A stretch of DNA of 64,000 nucleotides from contig NZ_NSKC01000008.1 of NCBI RefSeq assembly GCF_002286985.1, positions 248,001 through 312,000 on the forward strand, in the 5' to 3' direction. Position numbers and translations under genes: made by a program. The notes below the pieces were generated by a model, which saw nothing but the letters and a program-made list of their open reading frames with translations, did not search any database and was not told the DNA's origin. Shown in pieces: positions 18,570 to 45,951 of this stretch. This DNA comes from Halorubrum salipaludis. GTDB lineage: Archaea; Halobacteriota; Halobacteria; Halobacteriales; Haloferacaceae. The stretch's first letter is position 1. Each line of letters begins with the position of its first letter.

Positions 18570-20993
18570 ATGATCGCGGCGCTGGCACGAGACGCGAATC
18601 GGGAGGCCGAGGCGGCGAACGAGCGGCGCGTCCTCGTGCTCGCCGGCGACCGCGACCGCGGGTTCGACGCGGCCTACGACGCGATCGAGGCGGTCGATCC
18701 CACTTCGACCGCGATCGTCTCCACGCGAGAGGGGTTCCGGTTCGAGGAGCATCGCCCGCGGAACGCCGACGAGCTGCTGGGCCGCACCCGCGAGGTCGTC
18801 GTCCTCGACTGCCACGAGCGGTTCGTCCCGAACGCGCTCGGCCGCTGCGTGGGTGCCGTCGACGGCGGCGGCCTCCTCGTCCTCCTGACCCCGGACCTCG
18901 ACGAGTGGCCCGCGGTCCGCGACCGGTTCGACGACTCGCTCGCGGTCCCGCCGTACGGGGTCGACGACGTGACGGGGCGGTTCCGCGAGCGCTTCGTCGG
19001 GACGCTCCGGTCGCATCCGGGGATCGCGGTCGTCTCGCTCGGGGAAGACGGGCCGGCGGGCGACGCGGTCGAGCGCGACGGGCTCACCGGTCCGCGGGAG
19101 GAGACGACCGCGGAGTCGACCGTCCCGCCGAGCGCCCCGCCGAGCGCCCCACCGAACGCGGCGTTCCCGGCCGCGGCCTACGAGGCCTGCCTCACGGGCG
19201 ATCAGGTCCGGGCGGTGCGGGCGTTCGAGTCGCTCGCGACGCCGGGACACGCGGTCGTCGCCGAGGCGGACCGCGGGCGCGGGAAGTCGAGCGCGGCCGG
19301 GATCGCGGCGGGCGCGCTCGCGCTCGCGGGCGCCGACGTGCTCGTCACGGCGCCGGCGTTCCGCAACGCGTCGGAGGTGTTCGCGCGGGCGAGCGAGCTG
19401 ATCGGCGAAGGGGAGACCGATTCTGAGACCGCTCCCCGCCGCCTCGACGCGCCGGACGGCGGGCGGGTCCGGTTCCTCGCTCCCGCCGAGGCGGCCGAGC
19501 TCCCCGACGACCCGGACGCGGTGATCGTCGACGAGGCGGCCGCGCTCCCGGTGCGGCTGTTGGAGCGGTTCCTCGACGCGCCGGCGGTCGCGTTCTGCAC
19601 GACGGTCCACGGCTACGAGGGCGCAGGCCGCGGGTTCGCGATCCGGTTCACGGAACGCCTGCGCGCGAGCCGCTTTTCGGTGCGGGAGGTGCGGCTCGAC
19701 GAGCCGATCCGGTACGCGCGGAACGACCCGGTGGAGGCGTGGGCGTCGCGGGCGCTCCTGTTGGACGCGCGCCCGGCGGTCGACGAGGCGGTCGCGGGGA
19801 GCGCGGTCGGGGACGCGACGTACCGCGCGCTTCCGGCCGACGACCTGCTCGGGGACGAGGCCCTGCTCCGGGAGGCGTTCGGGCTGCTCGTCGCTGCCCA
19901 CTACCGCACCGAGCCGAACGACCTCGCGCGGCTGCTCGACGCGCCGAACCTCACGGCGCGGGCCCTGACGGCCGAGGGCCGGGTCGTCGCCGTCGCGCTG
20001 CTCGCGCGGGAGGGCGGGCTCGACGCCGAGACGCGCCGGCGGATGTACGAGGGCGAGCGGATTCGGGGGAACATGGTGCCGGACGTGCTCACGAGCCAGC
20101 TCCGCGACGAGGAGGCCGCCGCGCCGCGGGGGCTGCGGACGGTCCGGATCGCGACCCACCACGCGCTCAGGGGCGAGGGGTTCGGCACGCGCCTGCTCGA
20201 CGAGGTGCACGCGGAGTTCGGCGGGGAGGGCGAGGAGCGCGGGGAGGGCGAGGAGCGCGGGGAGGGCAAAGAGGGCGAGGAGCGCGGGGAGGGCGAGGAG
20301 CGCGGGGAGGGCGAGGAGCACGGGGAGGGCGAGGGGGTCGACGCCGAGGTCGACTACTTCTCGGTCGGCTACGGCGCGACCCCGCGCCTGCTCCGCTTCT
20401 GGCGGCGGGCGGGCTACCGGACGGTCCACCTCTCGACCTCCCGCAACGACGCCTCCGGGGAGTACTCCGCGATCATGGTGCGGCCGGTGACCGCGGCCGG
20501 CGAGGGGGGACCGGGAAGCGCGCTGCTCGACCGCCACGCCGCCGCCTTCCGCGACCGCGAGCGCGACGGGCTCTCGGACGCCCACCGCGACGCGGACCCC
20601 GACGTGGTCGCCGGTGCGCTCCGGGCCTGCTCGGCGTCGGTGTCCGTCGACCTGACCGAGACCGAGTGGCGCTCCGCGGTGGGCGCGTCGTTCGGTCCGG
20701 GGATGTACGACAGCGCGCCCGGCGCGTTCCGCGACCTCGCCATCGCGGCGCTGATCGAGGGCGGGAGAGAGAGCGACGACGGCGACGGCGACCCCCTCGA
20801 CGACCGCGAGAAGCGCCTGCTCGTCCGGAAGGTCCTGCAGGGCCGCCCGAGCGAGTCGGTCGCCGACGAGCTGGGGTACGTGTCGGCCGGGGCCTGCATG
20901 CGCGCGCTCGGCGACGCCTACGAGCCCCTCGTCGAGCGGTACGGGACCGAGTTCGCGCTCGCGGAGCGGGAGCGGTTTATAAACTCCGAGTGA
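18570..20993 (+). CDS. tmcA: tRNA(Met) cytidine acetyltransferase TmcA
   Basis: 807-aa enzyme that makes N4-acetylcytidine in RNA using acetyl-CoA and ATP. Domains in order: TmcA N-terminal domain (1-190), RecD-like ATPase with Walker A ADRGRGKSSAAG (about 232-243) and Walker B VIVDEAAALP (about 315), GNAT acetyltransferase (about 430-660), and a C-terminal tRNA-binding helical part. An acidic GEGEER repeat of about 38 residues is inserted in the GNAT domain (about 551-589), encoded by an 18-bp microsatellite. The enzyme otherwise appears intact. Confidence 0.92.
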   Translation: MIAALARDANREAEAANERRVLVLAGDRDRGFDAAYDAIEAVDPTSTAIVSTREGFRFEEHRPRNADELLGRTREVVVLDCHERFVPNALGRCVGAVDGGGLLVLLTPDLDEWPAVRDRFDDSLAVPPYGVDDVTGRFRERFVGTLRSHPGIAVVSLGEDGPAGDAVERDGLTGPREETTAESTVPPSAPPSAPPNAAFPAAAYEACLTGDQVRAVRAFESLATPGHAVVAEADRGRGKSSAAGIAAGALALAGADVLVTAPAFRNASEVFARASELIGEGETDSETAPRRLDAPDGGRVRFLAPAEAAELPDDPDAVIVDEAAALPVRLLERFLDAPAVAFCTTVHGYEGAGRGFAIRFTERLRASRFSVREVRLDEPIRYARNDPVEAWASRALLLDARPAVDEAVAGSAVGDATYRALPADDLLGDEALLREAFGLLVAAHYRTEPNDLARLLDAPNLTARALTAEGRVVAVALLAREGGLDAETRRRMYEGERIRGNMVPDVLTSQLRDEEAAAPRGLRTVRIATHHALRGEGFGTRLLDEVHAEFGGEGEERGEGEERGEGKEGEERGEGEERGEGEEHGEGEGVDAEVDYFSVGYGATPRLLRFWRRAGYRTVHLSTSRNDASGEYSAIMVRPVTAAGEGGPGSALLDRHAAAFRDRERDGLSDAHRDADPDVVAGALRACSASVSVDLTETEWRSAVGASFGPGMYDSAPGAFRDLAIAALIEGGRESDDGDGDPLDDREKRLLVRKVLQGRPSESVADELGYVSAGACMRALGDAYEPLVERYGTEFALAERERFINSE
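20221..20335 (+). repeat. 18-bp tandem microsatellite inside tmcA
   Basis: About six imperfect copies of GAGGAGCGCGGGGAGGGC, one shortened by a GGGCAAAGAG interruption. Each copy encodes a Glu/Gly/Arg-rich hexapeptide (GEERGE). The array length is a multiple of three, so the frame is kept. Slippage could change copy number between strains. Confidence 0.85.
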
Positions 20994-35943: not shown

Positions 35944-36128
35944 ACCTCCAGTTGCGGTTTGGCTCGCAAAAAGATGTCGCCGGCGTCGGCGATTCCGCCG
36001 CCGCTCCGCTATCTCCGCCGCGCCGGCGCCGAGTCCGCCGCGGTACCGGCGTGTCCGCCGCGGTGACCGCGATACCGATGCGTCCGGCACGGTAACGTTG
36101 AACACGCAGGCGCCCCGAGGGACCGACG

Positions 36129-36764
36129 ATGACGCAGATCACCGAACTGCGGTCGGGCGTGTACGACGTGACGGTCCGCGAGGCGAACGGCGGCCGCTAC
36201 CGGGTGTTCGTCCTCGACGGCGAGACGCCGACGATCGTCGACGCGGGGTTCGCGGACACGGTCGGAGAGGTCGTCGACGCCGTCGACGAGCTGGGTATCG
36301 CTCCCGAGCGGATAGCGGTCACGCACGGCGACGGCGACCACGTCGGCGGGCTGGCGGGGCTCGTCGAGGCCCTGGACCTCGAGTCGTGGGTGCCCGCGGA
36401 GTGCGAGGCCGACCTCGGCGTCGAGCCCGACCACCGGTTCGGAGACGGGGACGCGGTCGGCCGCTTCGAGGCGGTCCACGTCCCGGGCCACACCGAGGAC
36501 GCCTACGCGCTCGTCGATGAGGCGGGCGACCTCGCGGTGCTCGGCGACGCGGTCTTCGGCGCGGACGCGCGGGGACTCCCCGAGGGGTATTTCGTGCTCC
36601 CCGCCGGGTACTACTCCGCGGACCTGAACCGCGCGGACGAGAGCCTCGGACGGCTGCTCGACTACGAGTTCGACATGGGGCTCGTCTTCCACGGCGAGAG
36701 CGTCACCGCGGACGCGAGCCGGAAGCTGGAGCGGTTCGTCCGGTTCGCGGGGCGGCCCGACTGA
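36129..36764 (+). CDS. MBL-fold metallo-hydrolase
   Basis: 211-aa metallo-beta-lactamase-fold hydrolase. The core motif is THGDGDHVGG, where the usual HxHxDH is changed to HGDGDH and keeps the Asp and second His. A downstream His is in HVPGHTEDAY, and LAVLGDAVFGADARG provides the bridging Asp. Glyoxalase II- or lactonase-like activity is possible; substrate unknown. It may be part of the aromatic cluster. Confidence 0.82.
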   Translation: MTQITELRSGVYDVTVREANGGRYRVFVLDGETPTIVDAGFADTVGEVVDAVDELGIAPERIAVTHGDGDHVGGLAGLVEALDLESWVPAECEADLGVEPDHRFGDGDAVGRFEAVHVPGHTEDAYALVDEAGDLAVLGDAVFGADARGLPEGYFVLPAGYYSADLNRADESLGRLLDYEFDMGLVFHGESVTADASRKLERFVRFAGRPD

Positions 36765-43556: not shown

Positions 43557-44318
43557 TCAGCGGTACGTGAGGTTCAGCTCGAGGTCGTTGACCGCCGTCA
43601 ACAGCCGGTCCGCGTACTCGTCGTGGCACCGCTCCTCGGTCAGCCGGTTCGCCGCCCCGGCGATCGAGAGCGCGCCCTGCACCTCCTCGCGGTGAACGAT
43701 CGGCGCGCCGATCGCGTGGATCCCCGTGAGATCCTCCTCGAGGTTCAGCGCGTACCCCCGGTCGCGGGTCCGCTCGAGCTCGGCCAGCAGCTCGTCGACG
43801 TCGGTGATCGTCCGAGCGGTCCGCCGGGGGAGGCCGTGCTCGTCGACGATCTCGCGGACCCGCTCCTCGGAGAACTGCGAGAGGATCGCCTTGCCGCCCG
43901 AGTTGAGGTGGAGGTGCGTCCACGTGCCGACGAGCGAGTCCACGTTGATGTCGAGCGACCCGCCGTCGCCGAACAGGTACATCGCCATCCCGTTCTCCTC
44001 GACGATGAGCCACACCATCTCGCCGGTCTCCTCGGCGAGTTCGCGCACTCGCGGCTTCGCCTTGTGGAACACGTCGTACCCGTTCCGAACGAACGAGCCG
44101 TACTGAAACAGCCCGAGGCCGAGCCGGTACTCGTCGCCGCGCTGGACGACGCACCGCTGGTCGACGAGCGTGGCGAGGTGCTTGTGCACCGCGCTCTTCG
44201 AGAGGTCGAGCTCGTTCGCGATCTCCGTGACTCCGGCCCCGCCGCGGTCCTGTAACACGCCGATGACCGCGAAGGTCGTCTCGACCGCCCCGACCGTTTG
44301 CGGATCCGTTTCGTCCAT
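43557..44318 (-). CDS. IclR-family transcriptional regulator
   Basis: 253-aa regulator. N-terminal winged helix (GVTEIANELDLSKSAVHKHL, about 30-49) and C-terminal IclR effector domain (MVWLIVEENGMAMYLF ... LHLNSGGKAILSQF ... AIGAPIVHREEVQGALSIAG). IclR proteins often control aromatic catabolism by sensing a pathway acid. A TATA-like TTTTTTATCC lies about 25 bases before the ATG. Four GTGAAC repeats upstream are candidate autoregulatory sites. Likely regulator of the surrounding island. Confidence 0.92.
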   Translation of the reverse strand: MDETDPQTVGAVETTFAVIGVLQDRGGAGVTEIANELDLSKSAVHKHLATLVDQRCVVQRGDEYRLGLGLFQYGSFVRNGYDVFHKAKPRVRELAEETGEMVWLIVEENGMAMYLFGDGGSLDINVDSLVGTWTHLHLNSGGKAILSQFSEERVREIVDEHGLPRRTARTITDVDELLAELERTRDRGYALNLEEDLTGIHAIGAPIVHREEVQGALSIAGAANRLTEERCHDEYADRLLTAVNDLELNLTYR

Positions 44319-44365
44319 ACGTGTCGCCTGTGGGGCCAGGATAAAAAAGATCGTGTTCGTCAATC

Positions 44366-44432
44366 GTGAACGATCCCGAGTCGACTGTGAACGACTCCGG
44401 GGGCTGTGAACAATCCCAGAGTGGTCGTGAAC
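44366..44432. promoter_or_regulatory. four GTGAAC direct repeats upstream of the IclR promoter
   Basis: GTGAAC occurs at 44366, 44387, 44406 and 44427, spacing 21, 19 and 21 bases (about two helical turns), mostly within a longer GTGAACRAYCC frame. The array fills the gap between the aldehyde dehydrogenase stop and the IclR promoter. All copies would face one side of the helix, suggesting cooperative binding of a dimeric regulator. Confidence 0.65.
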
Positions 44433-44463
44433 GGCCCCCCGGGGGCGACTCGGCGCTCCCCGC

Positions 44464-45951
44464 TCAGAACGGGTACTCGCGCGGCTCGTGCTGGATCGAG
44501 ATCCACTTGTTCTCGGTGACTTCTCGGAGGAACTCGTCGGTGTTGTATCCGCCCATGCCCGAGGCGCCGGTGCCGCTGAACGGGACGTGCGCCTCGTCGT
44601 TGATCGGCTGGTCGCCGATGTGGACCATGCCGGTCTCCATGCGGTCCGCGATATCCTTCGCCGTGCCGAGATCACCCGCGTGGACCGACCCGGAGAGGCC
44701 GTACTCGGTGTCGTTCGCCAGCGCGACCGCCTCGTCCACGTCGGAGAACGGGATGACCGGCGCGATGGGGCCGAAGTGCTCGTTACACGCCGCCGCCATG
44801 TCGTTGGTCACGTCCGAGAGGACGGTGGGTTCGACGACCAAGGAGTCCTCGACCCCGTCGAGGTCGACGATCCCGCCACCGGTTTCGAGGGTCGCGCCGG
44901 CGTCGACCGTCTCCTCGACGTACGCCAGCATCTTGTCGCGCTGCGTCTCGTCGATGACGGGGCCGAGGTGGACCTCGTCGTGCGCGCTGCCCGCGGCCAA
45001 CCCCTCGGCGCGCTCGGTCAGCTTCGCGACGTACTCGTCGTAGGCGTCCTCGTGGACGAGGTGGCGGTTGATGGAGATACACACCTGTCCCTGGTGGATG
45101 AACGACCCGAACACGGCGCTGTCGACCGCGCGGTCGACGTCGGCGTCGCCGGTGACGACGTGGGCGTTGTTTCCGCCGAGCTCCATCGCCGGCACCGCGA
45201 GGTTCTCGCCGGCGGCGGCGGCCACGCGCCGCCCGACCTCGGTCGAGCCGGTGAACGCCACCACGTCGCTCTCGGGGTGTCCCGCGACGCGGTCGCCGAT
45301 CTCCGAGCCGCGGCCGGTGACGACGTTGAGCGCGCCCGCCGGGAGGTCGGTCTCCTCGAAGAGCTTCGCGAACAGCAGCCCGCCGCTTATCGGGGTGTTC
45401 GTCGCCGGCTTCAACACGACCGCGTTGCCCGCGGCGAGCGCGGGGAACACGGCCCGCGCGCTCAGGTTCAGCGGGAAGTTCCACGGCGAGATCACCGTCA
45501 CCACGCCCTTGGGCTCGCGCTGGACGAGGTTCTCCTTGCCGGGGATGTTCGAGGCGATGTGCTCGCCCTTCATCCGACGGGGGAGCGTGGCGGCCTCGCC
45601 GGCCTGATCCATCGCCAGGTGGTGTGAGGTGTGTCCGTACCCGGCGGTTCCGCCCGCCTCGTGCGACATCAGCTCGACGATGTCCGCCTCGGCGTCGTCG
45701 AGCGCCCGCAGGGCCTCTCTGACGACCTCCTCGCGGGCCGCCGGGGGCGTCGCTCCCCACTCGTCGCTCGCGCTCGCGGCCGCCTCGTAGGCCGCGTCGA
45801 CGTCCGCCTCCGTCGCGGCCGCCACCTCGGTGAACGACTCGCGCGTCGAGGGGTTCTCGACGGGAATCGTCTCCCCGTCGGCCGCGTCGACCCACGACCC
45901 GTCGATGTACAGGCTGTCCCAGTCGCTGTCAGGGCTGATGTCGTCTGGCAT
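44464..45951 (-). CDS. aldehyde dehydrogenase (NAD(P)-dependent), aromatic-type
   Basis: 495-aa ALDH. NAD-site VISPWNFPLNLSARAVFPAL, the GSTEVGRRV loop, the general-base Glu in AMELGGNNAH and the catalytic Cys in HQGQVCISINR are all in place. Closest in style to benzaldehyde/vanillin dehydrogenases, which oxidise aromatic aldehydes to benzoates that could feed the gentisate route. A GTGGTAAC word lies 38 bases upstream. It is upstream of the IclR gene on the same strand. Confidence 0.92.
   Translation of the reverse strand: MPDDISPDSDWDSLYIDGSWVDAADGETIPVENPSTRESFTEVAAATEADVDAAYEAAASASDEWGATPPAAREEVVREALRALDDAEADIVELMSHEAGGTAGYGHTSHHLAMDQAGEAATLPRRMKGEHIASNIPGKENLVQREPKGVVTVISPWNFPLNLSARAVFPALAAGNAVVLKPATNTPISGGLLFAKLFEETDLPAGALNVVTGRGSEIGDRVAGHPESDVVAFTGSTEVGRRVAAAAGENLAVPAMELGGNNAHVVTGDADVDRAVDSAVFGSFIHQGQVCISINRHLVHEDAYDEYVAKLTERAEGLAAGSAHDEVHLGPVIDETQRDKMLAYVEETVDAGATLETGGGIVDLDGVEDSLVVEPTVLSDVTNDMAAACNEHFGPIAPVIPFSDVDEAVALANDTEYGLSGSVHAGDLGTAKDIADRMETGMVHIGDQPINDEAHVPFSGTGASGMGGYNTDEFLREVTENKWISIQHEPREYPF

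What the first reader, a model, noticed from the sequence alone, without database searches (positions are those of the whole stretch)
44366..44432. Four helically phased GTGAAC repeats before the IclR gene
The copies start at 44366, 44387, 44406 and 44427, spaced 21, 19 and 21 bases, so they lie on one face of DNA. They lie just upstream of the IclR TATA box and downstream of the aldehyde dehydrogenase gene. Such an array is unusual for haloarchaeal promoters, which usually have one palindrome, and fits a cooperative activator or autoregulator.
Basis: seen in the sequence. Interest (0 to 1): 0.6.

Follow-up and report, generated by a model that had tools for sequence, protein, structure and literature searches.

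The report
Extended operator before haloarchaeal IclR gene
Four repeats in front of a salt-loving archaeon's regulator gene are real: one is half of the DNA site that this family of regulators probably uses to control its own gene, and the other three are extra half-sites, two DNA turns apart, that the one known close relative lacks.

Summary
The four GTGAAC copies (GTTCAC on the IclR strand) are exactly where reported, spaced 21/19/21. In 60,000 dinucleotide shuffles of the 145-bp intergenic region no hexamer occurred four times at 18-22 bp spacing. The same frame, GTTC-N9-GAAC, lies upstream of 28 of 70 haloarchaeal IclR homologues (0.6 expected; only at spacer 9), so copy 1 very probably belongs to the IclR operator. 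The only orthologue found (Halorubrum sp. Boch-26, 90% protein identity, same neighbours) keeps palindrome and TATA but lacks copies 2-4; its intergenic region is 63 bp shorter, about three units. Copies 2-4 match only the left arm and its 5' flank. Best reading: an autoregulatory IclR operator that carries three additional phased upstream half-sites for cooperative binding. Tandem IclR sites 18-22 bp apart and an external direct half-site (PcaU) are known in bacteria, so the kind is known; three extra half-sites in a row is a variant. Main rival: neutral minisatellite expansion. Binding and the sign of regulation are untested.

The parts
43557..44318 (-). IclR-family regulator gene (253 aa), ATG at 44318
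   Evidence: PF09339 HTH_IclR and PF01614 IclR_C above cut-off
44340..44348 (-). TATA-like element TTTTTTATC of the IclR promoter
   Evidence: seen in sequence; its left part is kept in the orthologue
44355..44371 (-). Palindrome GTTCACGATTGACGAAC, probable core IclR operator; contains repeat copy 1 (44366-44371)
   Evidence: frame GTTC-N9-GAAC in 28 of 70 IclR upstream regions, 0.6 expected; kept in orthologue
44387..44392 (-). Half-site copy 2 (GTTCAC), 21 bp upstream of copy 1
   Evidence: no right arm; absent in Boch-26
44406..44411 (-). Half-site copy 3 (GTTCAC), 19 bp upstream of copy 2
   Evidence: no right arm; absent in Boch-26
44427..44432 (-). Half-site copy 4 (GTTCAC), 21 bp upstream of copy 3
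   Evidence: no right arm; absent in Boch-26
44464..45891 (-). Aldehyde dehydrogenase gene upstream of the array, same strand (start approximate)
   Evidence: PF00171; syntenic in Boch-26

Best explanation
The array is an enlarged autoregulatory operator of the IclR-family protein encoded just downstream. An IclR dimer binds the 17-bp palindrome (44355-44371) next to the TATA box, as its relatives probably do at their own promoters. Three further copies of the left half-site (GTTCAC with a G-rich 5' flank), each about two DNA turns upstream of the last, offer weaker sites on the same face, so that further dimers or a tetramer can bind cooperatively upstream of the promoter. The extra half-sites probably arose by tandem duplication of a ~20-bp unit. 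Shown: the array, its non-randomness, the palindrome, the family-wide frame, the absence of copies 2-4 in the orthologue. Inferred: binding by this IclR, cooperativity, autoregulation, duplication and its direction. Sign of regulation: unknown; characterised haloarchaeal IclR proteins act as activators, but a palindrome so close to the TATA box would also suit repression.
For: Array beyond chance. Copy 1 is an arm of GTTC-N9-GAAC, which stands upstream of 28 of 70 IclR homologues against 0.63 expected, specific for spacer 9, mostly at -52 to -80 just before an A+T-rich TATA-like stretch, and of 5 of 8 plasmid-borne homologues. Palindrome and TATA context kept in the orthologue. Spacing 19-21 equals the preferred distance of tandem bacterial IclR sites (PMC8222616); an external direct half-site is required by PcaU. 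Shared 5' flank of the four half-sites.
Against: Copies 2-4 lack the right arm and are absent from the only orthologue. Two-turn tandem sites are not enriched upstream of other haloarchaeal IclR genes. No binding data. No other GTTC-N9-GAAC in the window, and none at the promoter of the upstream catabolic genes.
Confidence: 0.55

Rival explanations
1. Copy 1 is a real operator arm, but copies 2-4 are a neutral minisatellite: a ~20-bp unit that duplicated by slippage in one lineage and has no function.
For: Absent from the orthologue, and the length difference is about three whole units. Another ~20-bp-period array without an IclR gene beside it lies at 35994-36062 of the same window, and GTGAAC arrays elsewhere in the class are not near IclR genes.
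Against: The GTTCAC core is identical in all four copies while the 3' flanks have diverged to chance level, which fits selection on the half-site better than drift, though with four copies this is weak.
Confidence: 0.3
2. Copies 2-4 are sites of a different, unidentified transcription factor (activator) that only resembles the IclR arm.
For: They lack the right arm; haloarchaeal activators commonly act upstream of the TATA/BRE (general knowledge).
Against: They share the arm and 5' flank with copy 1, which is part of an IclR-type palindrome; the genome has no other three-copy array of this box.
Confidence: 0.1
3. The repeats act in RNA, as a 3' end or structured element of the aldehyde dehydrogenase transcript.
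For: The array starts 31 bp after the ALDH stop codon and contains G+C-rich inverted repeats.
Against: The predicted fold is not clearly more stable than shuffles (z -1.4); no Rfam family reaches its threshold there.
Confidence: 0.05

Closest known systems
Tandem IclR-family operators of bacteria, 18-22 bp between centres (comparative survey, PMC8222616)
   Same: IclR family; boxes with GTTC/GAAC arms; repeats about two DNA turns apart on one face; upstream of the regulator gene
   Different: There both tandem sites are palindromes; here only the promoter-proximal one is, and three single half-sites follow. Arms are 9 bases apart here, mostly 7-8 in the bacterial group 1 sites. Archaeal promoter.
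PcaU / PobR / HmgR three-box operators (PMC8222616 and references there)
   Same: A palindrome plus an external direct repeat of one half-site
   Different: One extra box there, three here, at two turns each; requirement for binding shown for PcaU, untested here; this protein scores far below the PcaR/PcaU/PobR subfamily cut-off (110 vs 285 bits)
Haloarchaeal IclR regulators XacR, GacR, RhcR, MscR (PMC11519228)
   Same: Same protein family and host group, beside catabolic genes
   Different: Sugar and sugar-alcohol pathways; no operator motif was found in the papers I could read

Membership tests
IclR-family transcription factor (downstream gene) | N-terminal HTH_IclR and C-terminal IclR_C domains | tested here: met
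   PF09339 46.6 bits (cut-off 22), PF01614 113 bits (cut-off 24)
IclR operator (haloarchaeal frame GTTC-N9-GAAC) | Palindromic GTTC/GAAC arms at fixed spacing close to the promoter of the regulator gene | tested here: met
   Copy 1 palindrome 44355-44371; 28 of 70 homologues
IclR operator (haloarchaeal frame GTTC-N9-GAAC) | Bound by the IclR protein | not testable with these tools
   needs EMSA or footprint
Tandem IclR sites 18-22 bp apart | Repeats spaced 18-22 bp | tested here: met
   21, 19, 21
Tandem IclR sites 18-22 bp apart | Each tandem site is itself a palindrome | tested here: not met
   copies 2-4 miss 2-4 of the 8 arm positions; only copy 1 is complete
PcaU-like operator with external half-site | Palindrome plus an additional direct half-site repeat | tested here: met
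   palindrome plus three direct half-sites
Conserved regulatory array | Copies 2-4 kept in orthologous loci | tested here: not met
   absent in Boch-26; only one orthologue available

The most novel reading that the evidence does not exclude
A haloarchaeal IclR regulator nucleates on a promoter-proximal palindrome and spreads cooperatively over a lineage-specific run of single direct half-sites, so that promoter response evolves by adding or losing 20-bp units. The next-closest Halorubrum homologue examined (L007, 49% identity) has a different three-copy array (TCCGGG at -109, -88, -68) in nearly the same place, which hints that such arrays arise repeatedly.
Probability: 0.15. Interest if true: 0.6.

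Novelty: new variant of a known kind. Interest (0 to 1): 0.35.

Why it matters
It gives a concrete, testable operator for haloarchaeal IclR regulators (YGTTC-N9-GAACR beside the TATA box), for which I found no motif in the papers I could search, and a natural pair of promoters, with and without three added half-sites, in two related Halorubrum genomes. Comparing them would show directly whether adding phased half-sites changes the output of an archaeal promoter.

Tried and rejected
Rfam: nothing above threshold. RNA fold: z -1.4. GTGAAC arrays across 391 genomes of the class: 23 genomes (about 8 for the reversed pattern, my count), but among the loci fetched only this one encodes an IclR protein within 1.5 kb, so the others are unrelated. 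A search of the genome for the palindrome used a spacer one base too long and was discarded; the corrected search gave three exact hits, this one and two others that look to be in coding sequence (judged by eye). Tandem second palindromes upstream of other haloarchaeal IclR genes: no enrichment at two turns. Promoter of the upstream acyl-CoA synthetase/ALDH genes: no GTTC-N9-GAAC. More orthologues: the genome-contig scan found only Boch-26, the genus search of 52 genomes no other; plasmid homologues (50-55% identity) have the palindrome but no array. A second GTGAAC pair of the genome (L001) does not lie at an IclR gene that I could see.

Full report
Setting. The window lies in a Halorubrum genome (3.5 Mb, 27 contigs); the genus is inferred from the nearest record with this locus, Halorubrum sp. 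Boch-26, held as a same-genus genome. The IclR gene is 43557-44318 on the minus strand (253 aa; PF09339 and PF01614). Upstream of it on the same strand are an aldehyde dehydrogenase (44464 to about 45891) and an acyl-CoA-synthetase-like gene; downstream is a gamma-carbonic-anhydrase-like hexapeptide protein. The gap before IclR is 145 bp (44319-44463).

Observation. All four GTGAAC copies are present at the given positions, and the similarity extends over 12 nt. In dinucleotide shuffles of the gap four GTGAAC never occurred (0 of 19,957), and no hexamer occurred four times at 18-22 bp spacing (0 of 60,000). A looser count, any hexamer four times anywhere in the gap with overlaps allowed, was reached in 112 of 19,957 shuffles, so it is the regular spacing that makes the array rare. 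Two other places in the window have a hexamer four times at such spacing: an 18-bp repeat at 20271 and TCCGCC at 35994.

What copy 1 is. On the IclR strand copy 1 reads GTTCAC and is the left arm of GTTCACGATTGACGAAC (44355-44371), which ends six bases before the TATA-like TTTTTTATC. I collected 70 upstream regions of haloarchaeal IclR homologues. GTTC-N9-GAAC occurs in 28 of them against 0.63 expected; spacers 3-8 and 10-15 give 0-2 each. Most hits lie between -52 and -80, with a pyrimidine before and nearly always a purine after, followed by an A+T-rich TATA-like stretch. Five of eight plasmid-borne haloarchaeal homologues have it exactly. The 70 regions include related genes and are not fully independent, but the spacer specificity cannot come from base composition. 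The frame resembles the GTTC/GAAC boxes of bacterial IclR sites (PMC8222616), most of which have 7-8 bases between the arms; here it is 9. Copy 1 therefore very probably belongs to an IclR operator.

What copies 2-4 are. They keep the left arm and share the 5' flank beyond chance (p about 0.005) but not the 3' flank (p 0.40), and none has a complete right arm. In Boch-26 the gap is 82 bp instead of 145. The flanking local alignments leave 80 bp here against 19 bp there, a difference of 61 bp, which equals 21+19+21. Palindrome and TATA context are kept there (GTTCGCTCTCGACGAAC then ACGATCTTTTTTA). So three units were gained here or lost there; without a third species the direction is open. The units differ in sequence (for example 75% over 20 nt between copies 1 and 2), so collapse in the Boch-26 assembly is unlikely (inference).

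How it may work. IclR proteins bind as dimers or tetramers. In a survey of bacterial sites, regulators of 94 orthologous groups have tandem sites 18-22 bp apart, explained by dimers on one face of the DNA (PMC8222616), and PcaU needs an external direct half-site. The array fits that geometry. I therefore favour an autoregulatory operator with three added, weaker, phased half-sites. The sign is open: the haloarchaeal IclR regulators XacR, GacR, RhcR and MscR are described as activators (PMC11519228), while a palindrome next to the TATA box suits repression too.

Limits. There are no binding or expression data. Only one orthologue was found, in 52 genomes of the genus and in the genome-contig scan. 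Two-turn upstream boxes are not a general feature of haloarchaeal IclR promoters. The one similar case among 70, L007 (49% identity, the closest homologue after Boch-26), has TCCGGG at -109, -88 and -68; with 70 regions scanned this could be chance. Neutral minisatellite growth from an operator arm remains a serious rival (0.3).

Verdict. It is a variant of a known kind of IclR operator, of moderate interest.

Noticed in passing
Upstream regions of IclR homologues (L005-L034, L086-L125, L156-L163): A palindrome YGTTC-N9-GAACR beside the TATA box is shared by about 40% of haloarchaeal IclR genes from several families: a likely general autoregulatory operator.
   Followed up: partly
L007, 1370-1503: Upstream of another Halorubrum IclR gene (49% identity) a different box, TCCGGG, occurs three times at 21 and 20 bp spacing, at -109, -88 and -68, upstream of a one-mismatch palindrome.
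   Followed up: partly
L114, L116, L119, L122: A third box GAAC lies a few bases upstream of the palindrome (GAAC at offset -8), like the three-box IclR sites with alternating direction described for bacteria.
   Followed up: no
35994-36062: TCCGCC four times at exactly 20 bp spacing, largely intergenic, upstream of a gene with metallo-hydrolase-like sequence at 36129.
   Followed up: no
L056-L085: Arrays of three or more GTGAAC at 18-22 bp occur in 23 of 391 genomes of the class, about 8 for the reversed pattern; many are near-perfect minisatellites and, apart from this locus, none lies near an IclR gene.
   Followed up: partly
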